Assembly (NCBI GenBank): GCA_016212085.1 | Contig: JACRHL010000022.1 | Coordinates: forward strand, 1 to 50,151 | Length of the DNA stretch: 50,151 nt | Reading direction: 5' to 3' | From: Nitrospirota bacterium | GTDB lineage: Bacteria; Nitrospirota; JACRHL01 | Shown: piece after piece, positions 38,471-50,151 of the stretch | How the letters are laid out: every line of letters starts with the position of its first letter | Numbering within the stretch: position 1 is the first letter of the stretch | Made by a program: the position numbers and the translations under genes | The notes under the pieces: generated by a model | The model's database searches: none | Told to the model about the DNA's origin: nothing | The model's input: only the letters and a program-made list of their open reading frames with translations

Positions 38471-39490
38471 TTACCTGGCGACAGGCGCTGTTCCGGCCGC
38501 TTCGAACCGTCGGACCCCATCTGCACCGACAACCAGATTCCCGACGATGGCCTGCATTACGGGAGCACACACACCATTGCCCAGGAGCTTGATCTGGTCG
38601 CGCCGAGAACCCCGCGCCATGATGTAGTCGTCGCCGAAGCCCATCGCCCTGCGGAGCTCCGGCACCTGGAGCATGCGCAGGGTGGGTTCGCTCCCTTGCC
38701 ACTGGACGAGCCCGAACCGATCCAGCGTCGTCATCGTGCGCAGAGGTTTGTCGAGCGGCTGCCATCCACCGGACCCGTCACTGCCGTAGTAGACGATGAG
38801 AAACGGCTCACCCTTGCCTAGCTGGGCGATCGCCCGTTCAGCCCGCTCCAGGGTCGGCAAGGCACGGCGCGGATGGTATAACGGGCCCGCATGCCACGGG
38901 CCAGCCCAGTCGATGATGTCACTCGCGGGAACAACCCCTCTGGAACCCGCGACGGACGCAACCTCCCTGTCGCGATCGCAGATGATGAACAGCCGGCGTC
39001 TCGCCTGCGGCACCCCGAAACCGGCCGCATCAAGAACCTCCTCCCGGACCGAATAATCCTGCCGGAGCCGTTCCAGCAGCCCCCGATATCCGCCCCAGCT
39101 CCGCATCTGGATGACGTTCTCGATCACCACCCAGCGGGGTTTGAGTGCCTCGACAAACTCAAGAACGTGGACCGCAGTGCGCCGGCTCTCCTCGTCCCGC
39201 TCCCGGCTTCCGCGGGCGCAGGTGTGGTTGGTGCATTCCGGTGACGCGATGATGAGGTCGATCGGCCCCAGCCCGTCCACACGCTCCGGGCCGACATCAT
39301 GACCAAGCCTGCCGGTGATGACCCGCGCACCGGGAAAATTGTCCCCGTATGTCGCGGTCGCGATGTCCCACATGTCGACCGCACATACCAGCTCCGCTCC
39401 CGCAAGGCGGGCACCATAGCTGCTGCCGCCACCGCCGCAGAACAGGTCGATGGTTCTCGGTCTCCATGTCAGTCTGTCACGCGCAATCAA
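38471..39490 (-). CDS. C5-cytosine DNA methyltransferase of the defence operon
   Basis: 339 aa from a TTG at 39490 that overlaps the Vsr stop (TTGA), with GGGAGAAGG just upstream. Upstream in-frame starts would give a non-homologous leader. C5-methyltransferase motifs run in order: I DLFCGGGGSSYGA, IV with the catalytic Cys as SPECTNHT (instead of PPC), VI ENV, VIII QARRRLF and X LLGNGVCAPVM. The target-recognition region (about 180-270) is short. It is the last gene of the seven-gene operon. It should mark host DNA so that the nuclease/helicase partners ignore it; the recognition sequence cannot be read from the protein. Confidence 0.9.
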   Translation of the reverse strand: MIARDRLTWRPRTIDLFCGGGGSSYGARLAGAELVCAVDMWDIATATYGDNFPGARVITGRLGHDVGPERVDGLGPIDLIIASPECTNHTCARGSRERDEESRRTAVHVLEFVEALKPRWVVIENVIQMRSWGGYRGLLERLRQDYSVREEVLDAAGFGVPQARRRLFIICDRDREVASVAGSRGVVPASDIIDWAGPWHAGPLYHPRRALPTLERAERAIAQLGKGEPFLIVYYGSDGSGGWQPLDKPLRTMTTLDRFGLVQWQGSEPTLRMLQVPELRRAMGFGDDYIMARGSRRDQIKLLGNGVCAPVMQAIVGNLVVGADGVRRFEAAGTAPVAR

Positions 39491-39990
39491 TGGTCCTTCT
39501 CCCTCTTGCCGGTCCGAAATTCTGCCACCCTCTCGCCGGCACTTCCAGGCCCGATCGCTTCGGCGATACGGCCGATGCACCTCTCCAGGTCCCGATCAAT
39601 CTGGTGCTCCCAGATCCTCACCACCCGCCACCCCAGGCGCCTCAGTTTCCGGTGGTTCCTGCGGTCGCGGCGGCGGTTCTGGTCGATCTTCTCCTCCCAC
39701 TTGAGCAACAGCTTGTCCCGCCACACCGGGAACCGCCACCCGTGCCAGAAATCGCCGTCAACAAATACGACAACCTTCGAATCCCGGAAGACGAAATCCG
39801 GCCTGCCAGGAAGGTCCCTGGCATGAGAATCCCAATGCAGGCCCAGACCTTCAAGGGCGGCGCCGATCATGCGTTCCGGGCCGGTATCCCGGCCGCGGAT
39901 CCGGCTCATCACGGCGCTGCGCTTCTCCGGCGACATGATGTCGCCCTTGTGGCGCCGAACCGGCTTGTCAGACCGGGACGTGGTCTGCAT
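39487..39990 (-). CDS. vsr: Vsr-like very short patch repair endonuclease
   Basis: 167 aa from an ATG at 39990, overlapping the AIPR gene by 23 bp. An internal ATG at 39936 (MSPEKRSAVMSRIRGRDTGPE, quoted in part) is where homologues usually begin. The PD-(D/E)xK-type core is clear: PGRPDFVFRDSKVVVFVDGDFWHG, then a helix of Arg/Lys and RLGWRVVRIWEHQI. Vsr nicks T:G mismatches produced by deamination of 5-methylcytosine; in paraMORC-associated systems a Vsr-type protein may instead serve as the restriction nuclease. The typical Cys of the VDGCFWHG motif is Asp here. The methyltransferase start overlaps its stop. Confidence 0.9.
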   Translation of the reverse strand: MQTTSRSDKPVRRHKGDIMSPEKRSAVMSRIRGRDTGPERMIGAALEGLGLHWDSHARDLPGRPDFVFRDSKVVVFVDGDFWHGWRFPVWRDKLLLKWEEKIDQNRRRDRRNHRKLRRLGWRVVRIWEHQIDRDLERCIGRIAEAIGPGSAGERVAEFRTGKREKDH

Positions 39991-41785
39991 CGAGCTTCAT
40001 CTCCGGGATGTCCGGATTCAACGGGGAGAGCGACGCACCCTTCACTGCATCCCAGCACTCCGGCTTCTTTGCCCACTCGGACACCATTCTGCCGGATGCG
40101 GTCTCATGCAGGGTTCTGTTCACATCCGTCGCCCATGACTGGATCTGCTGCTTGAGCTGCGGCGAGAGATCCTGGTGCAGCCAGATCCGGTCCATGTCGA
40201 GCCTCGCCCCCATCCGGTTTGATATGACCGATACCACGTACGCGACGATGTTGCCCTGGAATGCAGCGAACATGGGGCGTATCAGCTTCTGGGCCGTTTT
40301 GTACAGGATCACGACGGCAATCATCCGCTTGAACGCAGACACATCCGGATCGGGCGGAGAATTCTGCCCGTCATCCCCGTTCAAGGCCTCCATGAACCGA
40401 ATGAAGTTCTTCTGGTTTCCCTGGCTGACGACGTGAGGAAGCTGGTTCCACGCGTTAAGGTATTTGGCCAGATCGGTCTTGGTGATCTTCCGCGCTGGTG
40501 GGATCGCTTCCTTCAGCCTCTTCAATCTGGCAGGTGTCGTCCCCTCCCTGGCCAGCATGACGTTGTAGCTTCCGGCGGCACGCTCGTAGAACCACCGGCC
40601 AACACCGTCCGGGCAGTATGTCGAGGTGGCGAGCTTTTCGATTTCGACGTGGTAAGGCTTGTTGGCCGAAAGATCCGACTGCTTGACCGAGTTCTGGCTG
40701 TTCGCAAACTTCGATATATCGGAAACAAGCGCCTCCTCGTCCGCGGGATCAGGGGTCTTGAGCAGCAACACCTTTGCCGGCACACGTACACGACTCAGGT
40801 CGACGTCAGGGCTCTTTTTTTTCGAGAAATAGAGGGATGCGGTGGTCTGCCCACCGTTCACGATCTGCATTCCCTTCATCCATGAAATGCCAGGGCCACC
40901 GTCGCTCGTCCGTTCCTGGCACACTTCGTCGGCGACAAGAACAATGCCGTTGTTGTAAGCCATGAACCGTTCCGGGGCATTTCTGAGCGTGTCCCGGATC
41001 CCCTTGTTGACCTTGCCGGTCACGCTCAGGAAGGACCGGACATTCGCCTCAAGCAGACGGGCACCATACTTGTCGTACACGAACCGGAGCGCCTCGCCAG
41101 GTATGACGGTCAGGAAGCAATCGTAGTCCGTTGTCTCGCCCGGCACACAGATGCAGGGCAGGGGGCCGCCACACACTTCCTTGAAGTTGACGACCAGTTC
41201 GTCACGCGGCTTGCCTGCTGACCAATGTCGGTGAAGCCGTTCGATGTCCATGACCTCGAGCCTGACCGTCTTTCCGCTGATCTCCCTCGACTTGAAGTTC
41301 TTGGACTTTGCCTGCCGGTCCGTAAGTACGTAGATCCGGATCTGGTCGAGGTTTTCATATATCTCATGGATGGTGGCAGCCAGGAGGTGGGCATCATTGG
41401 ACGGATCCATGGTCGAGGCCAGACGTCCCCGGGCACACTGCGACAGGAAACGGAAGCACTGTTCCGCCGCATTCCTCGTCTCCGAGTCCGGAATGGGAGT
41501 CAACGTGTCCGCACCAGCATAAAGGCTGACAAACAGGTCAAGCTGATCCTGCTCGTCGGACACGGCATATCCACTCAGGCGAAGATTCGCGTTGCCCACC
41601 TTTGCCGCGTAATGGCAGATCTCCGGTTCGTCAAATGTCATCCCGATCTCGGACATGTGCTTCATGACGACCTCGGCGAACACCAGTTCCGGGTACGGAT
41701 AGGCTTGGCCTGGCGCTCCCAGGCGTTCGCCAGCCTCCCCACGGACCTCCGCCTGCGTCTGAATCAGGAACTCTTCAAGCCCCAT
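39968..41785 (-). CDS. AIPR-family protein
   Basis: 605 aa, close to full family length. The AIPR (PF10592, abortive-infection phage resistance) signature MQIVNGGQTTASLYFSKK lies at about residues 307-324, preceded by FMAYNNGIVLVADE and followed by FANSQNSVKQSDLSANKPYH (in part). The N-terminal third (FVSLYAGADTL...) resembles a nuclease-like fold in these proteins, with no motif I can certify. The family occurs in restriction-modification and abortive-infection operons; its biochemistry is poorly known. The ATG at 41785 overlaps the previous gene by 11 bp, and its end overlaps Vsr. Confidence 0.88.
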   Translation of the reverse strand: MGLEEFLIQTQAEVRGEAGERLGAPGQAYPYPELVFAEVVMKHMSEIGMTFDEPEICHYAAKVGNANLRLSGYAVSDEQDQLDLFVSLYAGADTLTPIPDSETRNAAEQCFRFLSQCARGRLASTMDPSNDAHLLAATIHEIYENLDQIRIYVLTDRQAKSKNFKSREISGKTVRLEVMDIERLHRHWSAGKPRDELVVNFKEVCGGPLPCICVPGETTDYDCFLTVIPGEALRFVYDKYGARLLEANVRSFLSVTGKVNKGIRDTLRNAPERFMAYNNGIVLVADEVCQERTSDGGPGISWMKGMQIVNGGQTTASLYFSKKKSPDVDLSRVRVPAKVLLLKTPDPADEEALVSDISKFANSQNSVKQSDLSANKPYHVEIEKLATSTYCPDGVGRWFYERAAGSYNVMLAREGTTPARLKRLKEAIPPARKITKTDLAKYLNAWNQLPHVVSQGNQKNFIRFMEALNGDDGQNSPPDPDVSAFKRMIAVVILYKTAQKLIRPMFAAFQGNIVAYVVSVISNRMGARLDMDRIWLHQDLSPQLKQQIQSWATDVNRTLHETASGRMVSEWAKKPECWDAVKGASLSPLNPDIPEMKLDADHVPV

Positions 41786-42800
41786 TCGATGTCACCCCAA
41801 GCTTCTCGAACGCCAGTTCAAGCCCGACCGAGCCAGCCCCGATTCGGCCCAAGTCCAGCAGATAACGTGCCTGCACGATCGCGGCCTCCACACGGTCGCG
41901 CGTCAGGACCGGAAGAGAATCCGTGACCGGGATGACAAGAGGGCGCTCGTCGTCGAAACGGCGGCTGTACCTGCCCGCAAAAGCATCCACGTACCCTGCA
42001 CGCAGCAAAAGAGTATCAAGAACGGCGCGGGCCGCCACATTGTCATCAACCCGTCGGCGCACGGATTCCACCACGTCCGGAAGCGATCTTCCCGTCGCAT
42101 CCGGACGCAGCCTGACCCCGGCAAGGTAAAGCGGATGCGCCAGGCGCGGGTCAAGCTGCTCCAGGGATCCTGCGGTCACCACGAAACCGTCGTCAGACGC
42201 GGTACACTTGACCTCGATTGCACCCTGTCCAAACACAAAGTCGTGCAGCCCGTCCAGTGGGCCCTGCCACGCGGCAAGCGCATCGGCCGGGGCGAATCCG
42301 ATCGCCAGCATCGCCTCCATCACCAGGAGCTCCCCGAACAGCCCGACCTCCGCGTCCGGCCCAAGGACCGGGTCCTGTCCTCTCTCCATGAACGATTGCC
42401 ACGCGGCAACCCGTCTCACGAACCTGTCAAAGAGTTCTTCCGCGCCGGCTCCGCCGGCAGCTTCAAGGACGTTGGCAACGTCCTCGACCATTCGGGCAAA
42501 CATTTCGACATTACCGGCCTTCTCACGAGAAAGGCATATCCACTCGTCACCCTCGCCCGCAACAGCATGACGCACCAGATCGACACGGAATCCCTTGCCT
42601 CGCGGCAGCTGCCGTCCAGCCAGGGGAACCCGGCCGCCGACGCTTATCAATAGAGCCTCGACATCCTCCGGAAACCGGCGTCCGGCAAGCATGGCAAACC
42701 GTCCATCCCGCCTGATCGGGATCGTCCGCCATCCGTCCCCGAATCCATCTCCCGCCAGAGCACGCCAAGCGTCCTGAAGTACATCGCGATCAGTCTGCAC
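41775..42800 (-). CDS. PD-(D/E)XK-motif protein (PF14390 type)
   Basis: 341 aa from a GTG at 42800 that overlaps the Z1 gene by 11 bp. The nuclease core is visible: GLFGELLVMEAML (Glu helix, about residue 150), LHDFVFGQGAIEVKCTAS (Asp, then ExK, about 185-202). The N-terminal domain (WRTIPIRRDGRFAMLAGR, SVGGRVPLAGRQLP) and the C-terminal SLPDVVESVRRRV region match the DUF4420/PF14390 family, which regularly neighbours Z1 and AIPR genes. Probable role: a nuclease subunit working with the Z1 helicase and the GHKL ATPase. Confidence 0.87.
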   Translation of the reverse strand: MQTDRDVLQDAWRALAGDGFGDGWRTIPIRRDGRFAMLAGRRFPEDVEALLISVGGRVPLAGRQLPRGKGFRVDLVRHAVAGEGDEWICLSREKAGNVEMFARMVEDVANVLEAAGGAGAEELFDRFVRRVAAWQSFMERGQDPVLGPDAEVGLFGELLVMEAMLAIGFAPADALAAWQGPLDGLHDFVFGQGAIEVKCTASDDGFVVTAGSLEQLDPRLAHPLYLAGVRLRPDATGRSLPDVVESVRRRVDDNVAARAVLDTLLLRAGYVDAFAGRYSRRFDDERPLVIPVTDSLPVLTRDRVEAAIVQARYLLDLGRIGAGSVGLELAFEKLGVTSNGA

Positions 42801-45621
42801 CGCCGTACTCCTGCTCCCACAGAATGTTGTTGGCCTTGTACTCTACCTTCACTCCGGCCTTGCTGCCTGGGAAGCTGATGCCGAAGCCCACAACCGGCGG
42901 TGTCCCGCGAGGGAAGTCCGCACCGGCCTTGTCTGGATCCAGCATGTACAGGAGCAACAGCCCGCGGTCGTGGTGAGGGTCCACACCCTCACCGCCAAAG
43001 CCCCTGATTTCCCTGATCGCAGGACCGTTCGGCTCGGCAGGCTCCTCCGCAGAGCGCTGCCTTCCGGGATCCTTGTGCCAGGCATGACGGCTGCTCTCCA
43101 GCGCGGCCATCCATGCTGCGTCGTCCAGATCGATCGTTTCGTCCCGTGGCGACATGAGCCGACCGATCGAATAACGGGTATCGGTGGACCCCTTGGCGCT
43201 TCTGCGGAGCATTTTCACTTCCACGCCGGGAGCCATTTCGAGGCGCCCACCCTCGCCGCCTCCTATGAGCGCAACACTCCAGTTCACCAGTTCCCCGCGC
43301 TTCGCCATCGATTCGATGAATTCGACAAGAAGCTGGCTGTTGACTTTGTACGCGTCAGAGTGCGTCCTGTACGCGGAAAGGAAATCAACCACCTTCTCAA
43401 ACGGAACACCCTCCCACAGGTGCCCCTCCCATTTCTGGCGGCCACTGTTTCGGACCCGCTCCGGGTCAACAACAGGCTCGCTCAAACCCGCAACGAGGCG
43501 TTTGGCAGCGTTCAGGTTTTCGGTGAGCTTAGCTGGTGACCGATGGAACGCAACCGTTTCCAGGAGCTGTCCGCTGAAGGACAGCCACAGGCTCTTCGCC
43601 GACCGCATCTTGAGCGGGGAGGTCACCATGAGGACCGGGTGCGACTGGACCTTCAGTCCGTAGTCATTCGGCGTGGCCCCGCTTGCGGCCATCATGTCGA
43701 ACTCCTCCCGCAGCTCCTCAGACGCATCCGCGATGTGGCCGAACCAGTCCACGAGATCCGGAGTCGTATACAGGCGGCAAAGATCCAGATAGCCGGGACG
43801 ATAACCGAACCACCGTCCCATCTGCATCAGGGTGTCGTACATCCGGGACGCACGGAGGAAATAGCTGACACACAGACCCTCCAGCGTCAGGCCGCGAGCC
43901 AGTTTGTCTCCGCCGACGGCGATGACCTTCAACCCAGTCGCGGAACGATCGGCATAGTCCAGCGCGTCCTTGGCGGTCCCATTAATCTTCCGGACCTCGA
44001 TGTCGGATACCGCGTCCGGAAGCCGATCCAGGACGTCCTGCCAAGCCGGAAGTGGATCCGCCGCCGCGACCCGTTCAGTGGTGGGCACGAAGTCCCTTTC
44101 CCAAAATTCCTTCAGGCGCACATGCAGTTCCGCCGTGCCGATGTTGCGCTGCAGTCTTTGGCGGAGGTGTCGCACGTATTCCTGGATCTGTCGGAACACA
44201 GACTCCTGGACCGAGTTGAAGCGGGTGACATGGACCAGCATGGAGGAGTGGTCGGCCCCCTGTCCCCTTGCCCGGCGAACGGCACACACGATGATGAAGG
44301 CATCAATTGCCTCCACGAGTGATGGCGGCAGCTCGTTCCTCCCCTGGAAGAGCGGGGTGTGGCCGTTCTTGTGACGACTTGGCATCCATCCGGCGCGACC
44401 GTCGGCCGACTCATGATCCTCGACGGATCGAATGAGGGGGAGGCCTCCGGTACGCCCACCGCTGTCCGGCCGGCCCAGGAGGCTCGATGGTCCGACATAG
44501 TCGGACGGTGCCGCCAGGTTGATGATGAACGCGGCAGGGAACAGGTCGGGCCCCTCCTCCTTCGTCTCCTTCCGCTCGTGGATGAAGATGTTCGCAAACG
44601 GCGTCGCGGTATAGCCGACATAGGCAGACCGGGAGAAGGTGTGAAGGATGCGCCGGATCAGCCCGTTGATTGCCTTGGGATCGTAATCCTCATCCGGCTT
44701 CCCGTCTGTATCGAACGGCTGCTCACCGGTGTCCACCGATGCGTGATCCGCCTCATCATCGATGACCAGAAGGGGCAGTTTGGTGACCAGCTTCCGGTGT
44801 GTCGACGAGTCCTTCGTGTCCGCCACATGACTCTCGATCCAGTGCAGCAGACGTTTGAGCACTGTCTTGTTCTTCTTGACCACGAAAAGCCATGGGCGCT
44901 GTTCAGGCGTGATGGCCAGGTGCCTTGCAACCTTGGTGTTGAAATCCCCAGCCTCCGCCCTGGTCGTGGCGCAGTTCGGCCGAATCCCCGCATCCACTCC
45001 GGCCCGCCCGACACCTACATAGCAGTCCTCCTGCTGGCCGGGATTCGTCGCGTACCCCAGGAATCCCTCGTCAAGCCGAATCTGTGTCTGGGCCCTCAGG
45101 TTGTTGTGCATTCCGGCCAGCACGATGATGATCTTGTATCCGGCGTCCGCCGCCTTGCATATGAGGCCCGTGTAGCTGCCTGTCTTTCCGGACTGGACAT
45201 GCCCGACCACCAGCCCGCGGCGGTCCCACGCACCCTGTCTGGTCGGATCTTCAAGGAGCCCGAGTATCGTATCCGTCGACTGGTCGAGCCCGTCCACAGC
45301 CTTCCAGGGCAGACGGCCTTCGAGCCACTCACGGTACCGTTGCCAGTAGCGCCAGTCCTTCCTCCGGTCAGCGTTCAGCCAGTCCACATGGCCCTCGTCG
45401 TTCCGGAGTGTCACGTCCTGACCGATCCAGATGCTGAACCTCCGGATCAGTTCGTCAACGACCGCTGCCCGATCCAGATCGATCCCCCATTGGGGGCTCA
45501 TCCGCAGAACCATGTCGATCTTTTCCTCGATGGCCGACGGTGTCACCTGTGGCGTTCCCTCGCCGTCCAGGAGCAATTCCTGGGCAATCTTGATGACCTT
45601 CTCTTCCGCAGCGGTTGTCAT
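42790..45621 (-). CDS. Z1-domain superfamily 2 helicase
   Basis: 943 aa from the ATG at 45621, which overlaps the ATPase stop (ATGA). The open frame continues upstream to 45795 but is non-homologous there. Helicase motifs: Walker A VVGHVQSGKTGSYTGLI (about 140-157), DEAD-type box LLVIDDEADHASVD (about 285-298), GYTATPFANIF (about 338) and the C-terminal GGDKLARGLTLEG and QMGRWFGYRPGY (about 605). The C-terminal Z1 domain (PF10593) covers roughly the last 250 residues. Such proteins are the motor of paraMORC-type restriction systems, presumably translocating on or remodelling DNA for the nuclease partners. Confidence 0.92.
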   Translation of the reverse strand: MTTAAEEKVIKIAQELLLDGEGTPQVTPSAIEEKIDMVLRMSPQWGIDLDRAAVVDELIRRFSIWIGQDVTLRNDEGHVDWLNADRRKDWRYWQRYREWLEGRLPWKAVDGLDQSTDTILGLLEDPTRQGAWDRRGLVVGHVQSGKTGSYTGLICKAADAGYKIIIVLAGMHNNLRAQTQIRLDEGFLGYATNPGQQEDCYVGVGRAGVDAGIRPNCATTRAEAGDFNTKVARHLAITPEQRPWLFVVKKNKTVLKRLLHWIESHVADTKDSSTHRKLVTKLPLLVIDDEADHASVDTGEQPFDTDGKPDEDYDPKAINGLIRRILHTFSRSAYVGYTATPFANIFIHERKETKEEGPDLFPAAFIINLAAPSDYVGPSSLLGRPDSGGRTGGLPLIRSVEDHESADGRAGWMPSRHKNGHTPLFQGRNELPPSLVEAIDAFIIVCAVRRARGQGADHSSMLVHVTRFNSVQESVFRQIQEYVRHLRQRLQRNIGTAELHVRLKEFWERDFVPTTERVAAADPLPAWQDVLDRLPDAVSDIEVRKINGTAKDALDYADRSATGLKVIAVGGDKLARGLTLEGLCVSYFLRASRMYDTLMQMGRWFGYRPGYLDLCRLYTTPDLVDWFGHIADASEELREEFDMMAASGATPNDYGLKVQSHPVLMVTSPLKMRSAKSLWLSFSGQLLETVAFHRSPAKLTENLNAAKRLVAGLSEPVVDPERVRNSGRQKWEGHLWEGVPFEKVVDFLSAYRTHSDAYKVNSQLLVEFIESMAKRGELVNWSVALIGGGEGGRLEMAPGVEVKMLRRSAKGSTDTRYSIGRLMSPRDETIDLDDAAWMAALESSRHAWHKDPGRQRSAEEPAEPNGPAIREIRGFGGEGVDPHHDRGLLLLYMLDPDKAGADFPRGTPPVVGFGISFPGSKAGVKVEYKANNILWEQEYGGAD

Positions 45622-47138
45622 GGTCCCTCGTCTCCCACAGAAGGGTCGTCCGGCAGTTCCTTGATGAGATCCGGATACGCGTCGAAAGGTTCCGTGTGAA
45701 GGAGCTGCTCGCGTGCGAGCTGAGGAGCCATCCCCTTGCGGACCACCAGGTTGCGATACATGACGCTGAGAACAGCCACCACTTCCGACGGGCAATCGGC
45801 GGAAAAACCGGTCCGCGGCGTCTCGCGGGCCTCTGCCGTATCAAGCCATATCCTCTGGACCGGCACCGTCTCCTCGATCACCCGGAGCATCGCCTGCACC
45901 CGGGGAAGCAGGTCGCCGGCATCATCGAGCACGGCCCTGATCGCCGGGTGACCTTCGTCGATACGGTAGCGCACACCCCCGCTGAAATGTTCCGTTCGCC
46001 ACGCCTGGATGACCGGCTCGCCTCCGCAGGTCCGTGTCCGGCCGCGGTGCGCGAAAACCCGTCTGGCACGGCTGCGGGTGTCCTCCGCCAGCCAGGTCAG
46101 CCGGTCCCTCAAAGAAACTGGCGGTCTCGCCACGGATTTCAGGATATTGATCTTCCAGGCCGCGTCGGCCGTGTTGGGAATATCCAGACGGATGCGGGCC
46201 AGGCGATGAGCCTCCTCCTTCGTCCAGGATCGCCCCTGGCCAAGACCAAGCCAGCTGCCCGCAACCAGCAACCGCTCGTTGCGATAGACGTAGAACCCCT
46301 GCTGGGCGGTCCAGCCGTCCGGCCCGGCGGCAGACTCCTGCTCCTTCTGGTCCAGCCTGTCCTTGTGCGGCAGGACATGACACCGCACCTCGATCTCGCC
46401 ACCCTGTGCAGGAATGTGGTCAACCGGCGAACTCCACGTTGCGGGATGTGCTGAAAGGAACGGATCCCAGGGGACGACGGCTCGGCCATTGATCGACAGG
46501 ACCAGGCGGGGACGGGTGCCCTGAAGGTACCTATGGAACACCATGGCAAGGTGATGCTCTACGCGGTCGACCAGGTCCAGGAAGTCCTGCTCGGTGAATC
46601 CCTGGGTGACAACCCTGTCGAGGTTCTCCCAGAGAACCAACGTGCCATTTTTTCTGTCCGACAGCTTGGCAAGCCAGACACGGGATTCGGGATCTGGACC
46701 TTCCAGCATGTACCAGCCGTCATCGTCACTGTCCGCCAGTGCATCAAGGTCCCAACGCAGACAGTTGATACTCCCCCCCTTCCCGCTGGCAACGGTCAGG
46801 CGACGACATTGCGAGAACGACGCCGTCTTGAGTCCCATGCCGAATCGACCCAGGTCGTCGGATTTTCTGTCGTCAAGCGGACTCCGGGAGCCGAGGCGCA
46901 TGGCCTGGTCCAGCTCCCCGGCATTCATTCCGTCGCCGTCATCCACGACCGCGATCACGCTCTCCTGGTTTCGCCAATCGAACAGGACTTCCACGTTCCG
47001 GGCGTGTGCCGCAATGCTGTTGTCGATGATGTCCGCCAGGGCGGTCGCCGTCGAATAGCCGAGGCCACGAAGGGACTCGATCATCGCGCCGGCTCGCGGC
47101 GGTGCATGGCGAAAGGCGTCGGGCAGACGCGACATCAT
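45618..47138 (-). CDS. MORC/MutL-like GHKL ATPase
   Basis: 506 aa. The ATG at 47138 overlaps the sigma-factor stop (ATGATG) and has GGAGGTGAT six to eight bases upstream, so it is coupled to the preceding gene. GHKL (gyrase, Hsp90, histidine kinase, MutL) motifs: N box [13 protein letters not shown] (about 35-47), G1 VVDDGDGMN (about 65-73), G2 [13 protein letters not shown] (about 97-109). An S5-like transducer region and a C-terminal helical domain follow (about 230-506). This is the paraMORC class described in restriction-modification neighbourhoods, thought to clamp or loop DNA in an ATP-dependent way. All residues needed for ATP binding appear present. Confidence 0.9.
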
Positions 47139-49321
47139 AAGATCACCTCCGCCGACCTCCGGGGACAATCATAAGGCGCCAGAATCCCGGACGCCCTCAG
47201 CGTCCGGAGCGCCTTGTCCTGGATCTGGCGAACCCTTTCCCGCGTGATACCGAGAATGATACCGACCTCTTCGAGCGTCCTTTCTTCACCGTCATCATCG
47301 AACCCATACCGAAGACGAATCACCTCCCTTTGACGCAAGATTCGCTTAATGTCGCTGTCCGCGCGAGCGTGATCAACCATGAATTGGAACGCCAATTCAA
47401 TCACGGCCCGCAGATCTCGCTGTTGCGCATCCCCGTCCAATCCGGATATGGAAAGAGAGGCCTGTATTTCATCAGCGGACAACAGCTCCCCGGCCTCCAG
47501 GATGGAAATGGGCTCTTCCGGCACTGTCAGAAAACCTTCGACTCGGCGAACCGGCAATTCCATCAGGGTCGAGAGCGTTTCGATATCCGGCTCAACCCCC
47601 GTCTTCTGGGTATGCTCCTGCCGCAGCCGTCGCATCCTGTTCAGCTCGTCATGCACGTGAACCGGGAAACGGATTGTTCGAGACTGGTCAGCGATGGCAC
47701 GTTGCATCGACTGGCGGATCCACCAGGTCGCGTACGTCGAGAATTTCGTGCCGTGCTGCGGATCGAACCTGTCCACGGCCTTGAGGAGGCCGATATTGCC
47801 TTCCTGGACAAGATCCAGGAAGGGGAGGCCGCGACGCTTCCTGGCAACCCACAGAACCAGTCGGAGATTCGCAAGCGCCAGAGTTTCCTTCGCGCGTATT
47901 GAACGTTGCACCCCGGCCAGAGCGGCCTCCGGATCCGTCCCCGGCACTGACTCGTGCATGACCTGCAACAGGCCGTTGATGAACGAGTCCGAGAATCCAA
48001 AGCCGAGCAGAGCCTCTGTGGCGGCACCAACTTCCGGCGCCAGGTTTCCCGACACGTGCGCCGCCTCAAGGCGGTCACACAGGGCGCGAACAGCGGTCAA
48101 TCTGGACAGCGGCTGCGGCGACAGTGACGAGGTTCCGGTACTTGGATCTGGTCCTGCCGGAGGTTCGCCGTCCGACTCGGAGACCTCTGGCGTGTCGCTT
48201 TCGGAGAGGTGCGAACGATCATCAGCAAAGATTGCCCCTGCGGGCACCTCTCCTTGTTCGATCCGGAAGCACAACACCTTGACCCACGACACCACATCCG
48301 GACAGCGAAAGGCGACGCGCAGCGTGTCCTTCACGCCCTCCTGGATGTCCAACCCAAGTGCCACCTCCTCCTCCCTCGAAAGGACGTTGCGAGGCCCAAG
48401 GTCGCGGACATAATGGGACAGGGGATCCGCGGCGGAACCGTTCAGTTCGCGGAGAAAAGCGATGGCGGAATCGGCCTGATCGAACTCGGCGTCGGAAATG
48501 TCATCCGGAAAGGCCGACGCATGTCCCTCTATCCGGAAAGGATCAGCTTCCACCCGAACCCCCAGGTCTTCCAGGACAACGCCCAGGTTCGAACGCACAT
48601 CCTCGTCCGGGCCGTCGTCCGGACTTGCAGACAGGGACTCCTCGATATCATCAACGTGAACGCTACCTGAGCGGAGCCCGCGGCAGATCAGGTCATGGAT
48701 CGCCTCGTCATCGATCGCTCCGGAACGCCGGCGCCGCCGGGCCCGAACGATGTCGGGAAGATCGATATCGATATCAGACCAGTCTTCGTCAAGATCCAGT
48801 GGCACATGGACCGACATATCTTTCTGGAGAAGGATCGCCTTGGCAAGCAGCTCCGGGTTGTTGTCAGGTCGAGCCGGCTCGACCTCCTCCTCCCATCCCT
48901 CTGCATTCAGGCGATCGTCCGCAACGTCATCCGTCCCGGACTGATTTCGGACGCCGGCATCACCGGTCACATCTTCATACCCGGAAGGTTCCACCGGTTC
49001 TGCACGAGTCACGCTGTTTGCCGTCCGAATGCTCAGAAGTTCCGCTATACCTGGCCATCCGAGCCGGATGGCCAGAGAAAGAGCATCGTTGCCGTCGGAA
49101 TTTTTCAGGAAAGGATCGGCTCCGGCATCAAGAAGCATCCGGCAGATATCTGCATGACCCTTCACGGTCGCATGCATGAGGGCCGACATTCCCCGTCCAT
49201 CGACCGCGTTGACGTCGTCACCCCGACGGAGGTGCAACGAAACCACAGACGCCACCCCGGCCAGTACCGCGAGCTTGAACGTTGGCGACAACCTGTGTGA
49301 CCGGACAGCTGGGTCAGACAT
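47135..49321 (-). CDS. Ankyrin-repeat/primary-type sigma-70 factor fusion
   Basis: 728 aa, first gene of the defence operon. Residues about 10-100 are ankyrin repeats ([40 protein letters not shown]). About 205-260 resembles sigma region 1.1 ([21 protein letters not shown], in part, then [10 protein letters not shown]). Region 1.2 is at 299-330 ([21 protein letters not shown]). Region 2 is at about 485-555 with [19 protein letters not shown] and the -10-melting [18 protein letters not shown]. Region 3 is at about 560-600. Region 4 is at about 662-710 ([32 protein letters not shown]). This is the complete layout of a housekeeping-type sigma factor. The ATG at 49321 has no strong ribosome-binding site, and IS3 sequence begins within about 10 bp upstream, so the native promoter may have been lost or replaced. 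Confidence 0.9.
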
Positions 49322-49327
49322 AGAGGT

Positions 49328-49600
49328 GGCCCCGTTTGTTTGAACAGGTTGGCCCGTTTGGATCAGTGGATTCCCCGCGGTTTCATGCTGCCTCGGGCCT
49401 GGGCAGTTGCTCGAAGTAAACCCGGGCCGGGGTCATGCGGTCAAGGCAGCGCCCGATGGACGCCCTGGCCTGTGACACGGATTCGCAGGCCCTCAGGTAC
49501 ACCTTCTCGTACTGGATGCTCTTCCAGAGCCGCTCGATGAACACGTTGTCCCGCCAGCAGCCCCTGCCGTCCATGCTGATGCGGATGCCGCTGTCCTTGA
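49328..49600 (-). pseudogene. IS3-family transposase OrfB C-terminal remnant
   Basis: Frame 49600-49386 reads LKDSGIRISMDGRGCWRDN, VFIERLWKSIQYEKVYLRA and ends [16 protein letters not shown]-stop: the end of an IS3-family DDE integrase with the catalytic Glu in FIERLWKS. The usual stretch between RASIGR and TPA (about 15-20 residues, including the RPH motif) is missing, so it carries an internal deletion. 49328-49360 (GTTTGAACAGGTTGGCCCG) looks like the non-coding IS end. The 5' part is cut exactly where the first CRISPR repeat begins. Confidence 0.85.
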
Positions 49601-50151
49601 GTTTCAACGCCGACCGGTCGGCATTCCCTTACGGGTGGCAAAGGACTTGTCAGCGGAGTCGAACATTGTTTCAACGCCGACCGGTCGGCATTCCCTTACG
49701 GGTGATTTTGAGATGGCGTAACGGAGAGGTAGTCGGTTTCAACGCCGACCGGTCGGCATTCCCTTACGGGGAAATGGAGGGGCGCACCATCGACGTGGGA
49801 CATGGGTTTCAACGCCGACCGGTCGGCATTCCCTTACGGGATGACCGCCTATTACAACGAAAACAACCCATTGTTTCAACGCCGACCGGTCGGCATTCCC
49901 TTACGGGACTACGTGATCCATTGCCTCGGAATGCCGTTCGAGTTTCAACGCCGACCGGTCGGCATTCCCTTACGGGACGACCGCGATGACGGTGACGTTC
50001 TCGGGCGTCAAGTTTCAACGCCGACCGGTCGGCATTCCCTTACGGGTCGGTGGAAACGATCCTGGCCCAGCAGCTTGAGTTTCAACGCCGACCGGTCGGC
50101 ATTCCCTTACGGGTGGCAAAGGACTTGTCAGCGGAGTCGAACATTGTTTCA
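49601..50151 (-). CRISPR. CRISPR array, eight full repeats, continues past the window
   Basis: Repeats of 35 bp start at 49601, 49668, 49736, 49806, 49873, 49942, 50012 and 50079, all identical, and a ninth starts at 50146. The repeat begins GTTTCAACG and ends CATTCCCTTACGGG, with a 14-bp palindrome (GCCGACCGGTCGGC) inside. Spacers are 32, 33, 35, 32, 34, 35, 32 and 32 nt. Read on the minus strand the repeat ends in GTTGAAAC, the usual 3' handle, so transcription is probably leftward and the leader lies beyond the right edge. Spacer 1 (49636-49667) and spacer 8 (50114-50145) are identical. No cas gene is in the window, so the subtype is unknown. Confidence 0.98.

What the first reader, a model, noticed from the sequence alone, without database searches (positions are those of the whole stretch)
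49841..49872. Spacer 4 appears to match the start codon region of a phage cytosine methyltransferase gene
Spacer 4 translates from its first base as MTAYYNENNP. This is strikingly like the N-terminus of DNA cytosine methyltransferases common in phages (MTAYYNE.DP from memory). The spacer would target the gene a phage uses to mimic host methylation. That is a neat complement to a methylation-based restriction operon next door: a phage that escapes restriction by methylating its DNA would be hit by CRISPR at the methyltransferase gene.
Basis: partly seen in the sequence, partly recalled or inferred. Interest (0 to 1): 0.7.

Follow-up and report, generated by a model that had tools for sequence, protein, structure and literature searches.

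The report
CRISPR spacer against phage methyltransferase gene
A bacterium keeps a 32-letter immune memory that matches, with one letter different, the start of a DNA-methylation gene common in phages; the match is real, but it is an ordinary, if unusually legible, example of CRISPR immunity.

Summary
Window 49841-49872 is a true spacer between perfect 35-nt CRISPR repeats and reads MTAYYNENNP from its first base. More than 120 IMG/VR phage contigs carry MTAYYNE at an ATG, and nearly all continue as a C5 cytosine methyltransferase (consensus MTAYYNExDP). The best protospacer match is 31/32 in a methyltransferase gene on a Rhizobium contig (one synonymous change), then 30/32 in an IMG/VR prophage; phage SEN5 matches over 22 nt at its annotated methyltransferase start. 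About 3e-6 matches of 31/32 would arise by chance.

Corrections: the array's repeat belongs to a type III-B (Cmr) system held on other contigs, so the guide is inferred to be read from the minus strand, antisense to the methyltransferase mRNA, and no PAM is expected. The neighbouring operon is Mza (MzaA-E) with a C5 methyltransferase gene beyond it, not a demonstrated restriction system. The gene family is certain, the source phage is not: 31/32 can be a best-of-family match, and no other spacer clearly matches these genomes. None of 395 other genomes of the host's phylum carries this start site. The idea that methylation-escape phages are caught by CRISPR is untested. Ordinary biology; modest interest.

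The parts
49841..49872 (-). Spacer 4; the guide RNA is inferred to be read from the minus strand, antisense to the phage methyltransferase mRNA (the + strand is the sense strand, ATG first)
49601..50151 (-). CRISPR array: 8 repeats of 35 nt and 7 distinct spacers; the 8th spacer (50114-50145) repeats spacer 1
   Evidence: orientation from the 3' handle GTTGAAAC and from the leader position in the sister arrays on contigs C10 and C4
50074..50151 (.). 78-nt contig end identical to 49596-49673; probably an assembly-graph overlap or a tandem duplication of array units
   Evidence: family D2, 100%
49334..49600 (-). Remnant of an IS3-type transposase cut off at the array edge, the only copy in the genome
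   Evidence: family assignment by reading the translation, not by a model
47135..49321 (-). Ankyrin plus sigma-70 protein, MzaA-like in its C-terminal half
45618..47168 (-). MzaB (MutL-type HATPase_c_3)
42790..45795 (-). MzaC (Z1 domain)
41775..42800 (-). MzaD (DUF4420, PD-(D/E)XK)
39968..41785 (-). MzaE (AIPR)
38471..39580 (-). Host C5 cytosine methyltransferase downstream of mzaE; not of the MTAYYNE type and not matched by the spacer

Best explanation
Spacer 4 is an immune memory taken from a (pro)phage or related mobile element that carried a small C5 cytosine methyltransferase of the MTAYYNExDP family (phrog_363). It belongs to a type III-B (Cmr) CRISPR system whose other arrays and effector genes lie on other contigs of the same genome. 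Shown: the spacer, the gene family and site it matches, the shared repeat, and the Cmr genes. Inferred: the array is transcribed from the minus strand, giving a guide antisense to the first ten codons of the methyltransferase mRNA; Cmr-Cas10 would bind that transcript in an infected cell, and the lack of pairing between the 8-nt handle and the target's 3' flank marks it as foreign. The choice of the methyltransferase gene needs no special explanation: in the annotated examples it sits among early and replication genes, where functional type III spacers are known to concentrate.
For: Spacer and repeats exact. Matches at the ATG of C5 methyltransferase genes: 31/32 in a Rhizobium sp. S152 contig, where the only change is synonymous AAC to AAT, 30/32 in IMGVR_UViG_648276688_000003, 29/32 in L034, and 22-nt matches (95%) at the annotated methyltransferase start of Salmonella phage SEN5. 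The Rhizobium gene product is PF00145 / phrog_363 and resembles M.HhaI. Repeat shared with arrays on C10 and C4, C4 carrying Cmr1, Cmr2/Cas10, Cmr3 and two further RAMP genes; the only cas1 lies in a separate locus with a different repeat. Common leader-like sequence on the right of the C10 and C4 arrays, and repeat 3' handle GTTGAAAC. Handle-flank pairing 1 of 8 in the Rhizobium gene against 8 of 8 in the array itself. Published: type III guides must be antisense to their RNA targets (PMC5576922); type III phage spacers in Thermus were nearly all complementary to transcripts and mostly from early genes (PMC7515739).
Against: No exact 32/32 protospacer was found. None of the other 34 spacers matches the same (pro)phage genomes by a clear margin over shuffled spacers (best 26/35 against a shuffled best of 24), so the source phage is unknown. 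None of the 395 other genomes sampled from the host's phylum has the start site. The leader of this particular array is not in the contig, so its orientation is taken from the sister arrays.
Confidence: 0.88

Rival explanations
1. One reading: the spacer was kept because it complements the neighbouring operon, catching phages that evade restriction by methylating their DNA.
For: The array is about 280 bp from the Mza operon, which has a C5 methyltransferase gene downstream, and the spacer hits a phage C5 methyltransferase gene.
Confidence: 0.05
2. The guide works as a broad-range weapon: because the first ten codons of this gene family are strongly conserved, a mismatch-tolerant type III guide would recognise many unrelated phages.
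For: First and second codon positions are nearly invariant over the first 20 nt across 121 family members, and most differences fall at wobble positions; in part this reflects the search pattern itself.
Against: The median family member has 7 mismatches and only 9 of 121 have 4 or fewer; published work on a type III-A system found cOA synthesis sensitive to mismatches near the 5' end of the guide (PMC9704408), which here pairs with the most variable codons.
Confidence: 0.1
3. The resemblance is coincidental.
For: None found.
Against: 31/32 against an expected 2.7e-6 chance matches in 257 Gb, at the ATG and in frame with the family predicted before the search.
Confidence: 0.005

Closest known systems
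Type III-B CRISPR systems with reverse transcriptase or Cas6 fusions (e.g. Marinomonas mediterranea)
   Same: Cmr effector genes, a Cas6-RT protein next to the arrays, spacers expected to act against transcripts without a strict PAM (PMC5576922)
   Different: Here the Cas1 part is absent, the RT catalytic motif reads SAAD instead of FADD and the frame breaks after it; cas1 exists only in a separate CRISPR locus with a different repeat
Type III spacers acquired during phage infection in Thermus thermophilus (PMC7515739)
   Same: Spacer complementary to a phage transcript, from a gene class placed among early genes in the annotated examples
   Different: Natural array, phage unknown, no experiment
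Mza defence system (MzaABCDE)
   Same: All five parts recognised by PADLOC models in order
   Different: MzaA matches only in its sigma-factor half and carries ankyrin repeats; a C5 methyltransferase gene lies downstream; its relation to the spacer is adjacency only

Membership tests
CRISPR spacer with a protospacer in a phage methyltransferase gene | High-identity match (at least 95% over the full length) inside the gene | tested here: met
   31/32 (96.9%) in L186; 30/32 in L059
CRISPR spacer with a protospacer in a phage methyltransferase gene | The matched gene encodes a C5 cytosine methyltransferase | tested here: met
   P0001: PF00145 E 9.6e-15, phrog_363 for the containing ORF, M.HhaI-like in PDB
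CRISPR spacer with a protospacer in a phage methyltransferase gene | The matched gene lies in a phage or prophage | tested here: inconclusive
   L059 is an IMG/VR viral contig and SEN5 is a phage; for the 31/32 match on the Rhizobium contig only a few neighbours have PHROG hits and genes beyond 9 kb look cellular
Type III-B CRISPR-Cas | Cmr effector set with Cas10/Cmr2 | tested here: met
   Cas10-Cmr2, Cmr1, Cmr3 and further RAMPs on C4, the contig that carries the same repeat
Type III-B CRISPR-Cas | This array is transcribed and loaded into Cmr, with the guide antisense to a transcript | not testable with these tools
   Orientation inferred from the handle and from leaders of the sister arrays
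Mza defence system | MzaA to MzaE gene set | tested here: met
   PADLOC models for all five, MzaA partial
Restriction operon based on methylation | Cleavage of DNA that lacks the host's methylation | not testable with these tools
   Only gene content is known: a C5 methyltransferase beside Mza genes

The most novel reading that the evidence does not exclude
Layered defence in which a CRISPR guide is aimed at the very gene a phage uses to hide from a neighbouring methylation-sensing system, so that the counter-defence becomes the target; and this as a general pattern rather than a single case.
Probability: 0.04. Interest if true: 0.7.

Novelty: new member of a known kind. Interest (0 to 1): 0.3.

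Why it matters
Spacers of RT-linked type III-B systems can rarely be traced to any source (PMC5513706), so one that can be read as a named gene at its start codon is useful. It indicates that phages or mobile elements with MTAYYNE methyltransferases reach this host, although none of the 395 other genomes sampled from its phylum carries the site. It does not change what is known of CRISPR.

Tried and rejected
PAM search: rejected as a test, since the matching system is type III-B; the flanks of the two best matches share no motif. Exact search of the last 26 nt of the spacer in IMG/VR: no match. Self-targeting: no other copy within 3 mismatches in the genome. Other spacers: the remaining six of this array and the 28 of the sister arrays gave no credible match in phage records; amino-acid patterns for spacers 3, 5, 6 and 7 in IMG/VR gave nothing convincing. 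Plasmids: best was a 26-nt, 92% match in a methyltransferase gene on a Klebsiella plasmid with phage-type neighbours. A strand-bias test of the array by open frames alone was judged inconclusive. The second CRISPR locus on C12 was set aside because its repeat differs. The host's name and phylum could not be settled with the tools used.

Full report
Observation. Positions 49841-49872 hold ATGACCGCCTATTACAACGAAAACAACCCATT between two identical 35-nt repeats; the array at the window's right end has eight repeats and seven distinct spacers, and this is the fourth on the + strand. Its first frame reads MTAYYNENNP. The window is contig C20 of a 2.70-Mb genome in 23 contigs.

The resemblance is real. 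In annotated phages the site is the first base of a 'DNA-cytosine methyltransferase' in Salmonella phage SEN5, lying between an adenine methylase and a replication gene.

Best matches. A Rhizobium sp. S152 contig matches 31/32, with one synonymous change (AAC to AAT), and reads MTAYYNENNPFAAQWLRKLI. An IMG/VR prophage contig matches 30/32, and a third contig 29/32. The Rhizobium gene encodes a 289-residue protein scoring against PF00145, and the ORF containing it against phrog_363; its nearest solved relative is M.HhaI. Whether that gene sits in a complete prophage is not settled: some neighbours have PHROG hits, but genes from about 9 kb on look cellular.

How strong is it? Under a random model 2.7e-6 matches of 31/32 are expected in 257 Gb. 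That settles the gene family. It does not settle the phage: drawing bases column by column from the family itself, a member reaches 31/32 with a probability of about 1.3e-4, so among the many members in public data the Rhizobium gene may simply be the best of the family. In keeping with this, the other spacers do not match these (pro)phage genomes clearly above shuffled controls, and 395 other genomes of the host's phylum lack the start pattern altogether.

Which CRISPR system. The same repeat occurs on contigs C10 and C4, 39 copies in all. C4 carries an array, a leader and a Cmr operon with Cas10/Cmr2, Cmr1, Cmr3 and further RAMP genes: type III-B. C10 carries two arrays around a Cas6-RT gene. 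The genome's only cas1 is on C12, beside an array with a different repeat. On C10 and C4 a common leader-like sequence follows the array on its right in the orientation used here, and the reverse complement of the repeat ends in GTTGAAAC, a typical 5' handle (the last point from general knowledge). The guide is therefore inferred to come from the minus strand, antisense to the methyltransferase mRNA, as a type III guide must be to work (PMC5576922). The 8 nt after the protospacer match the handle's complement at 1 of 8 positions in the Rhizobium gene and 0 of 8 in the prophage, against 8 of 8 in the array, so the target would read as foreign. A PAM is not expected.

The neighbourhood. The 'restriction operon' is Mza: MzaB, C, D and E are recognised strongly and MzaA in its sigma-factor half, with a C5 methyltransferase gene downstream. 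A second host methyltransferase of the same kind lies on C15. Neither is of the MTAYYNE type and neither is targeted. Mza is described in the literature as a validated defence system (PMC9523054); no evidence here shows that it depends on methylation. Between operon and array lies a truncated IS3-type transposase, present once in the genome.

Why this gene. A plainer account is enough: these methyltransferases are widespread in phages, lie among early and replication genes in the annotated cases, and type III spacers that protect are concentrated in early genes (PMC7515739). A broad-range effect is possible, since the first 20 nt vary almost only at wobble positions (in part because the search pattern required it), but the median family member has seven mismatches and the guide's 5' end pairs with the most variable codons.

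Verdict. Observation confirmed; gene identification confirmed; PAM expectation and functional pairing with the neighbouring operon not supported. An ordinary spacer-target relation, interesting because sources of spacers in RT-linked III-B systems are rarely traceable (PMC5513706).

Noticed in passing
L142 (contig C10) 750-2288: Cas6-RT gene between two arrays, without a Cas1 part; the RT catalytic motif reads SAAD where the solved Cas6-RT-Cas1 has FADD, and the frame breaks soon after, so the RT is probably a relic while the Cas6 part looks intact.
   Followed up: partly
50074-50151 and 49596-49673: The last 78 nt of the contig repeat the first array unit exactly, five bases of the upstream flank included; either a graph overlap at a contig end or a tandem duplication of the seven-spacer block.
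   Followed up: partly
L142 end and L143 start: The last spacer of C10 and the first of C4 are near-identical but differ at a few bases, and a nearby repeat has errors; the two contigs probably join there and their ends are of low quality.
   Followed up: no
47135-49321: Fusion of ankyrin repeats to a sigma-70 factor in the MzaA position.
   Followed up: no
L182 (contig C12) 19-8369: A second CRISPR locus with a different repeat (GTTTCAATCCGCACCCCTCCCGGAGGAGGGGTGAAGC) next to the genome's only cas1; the gene order suggests type I-C but was not tested.
   Followed up: no
L192 6456-8281: Two phrog_363 methyltransferase genes in tandem on the Rhizobium contig that holds the best match.
   Followed up: no
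L183, L184, L188, L190: Two Magnetococcales metagenome-assembled genomes each hold two copies of a methyltransferase with the rare MTAYYNENNP start.
   Followed up: no
G000:C23:114590-115417: A separate reverse transcriptase gene in the host genome, not near the arrays.
   Followed up: no
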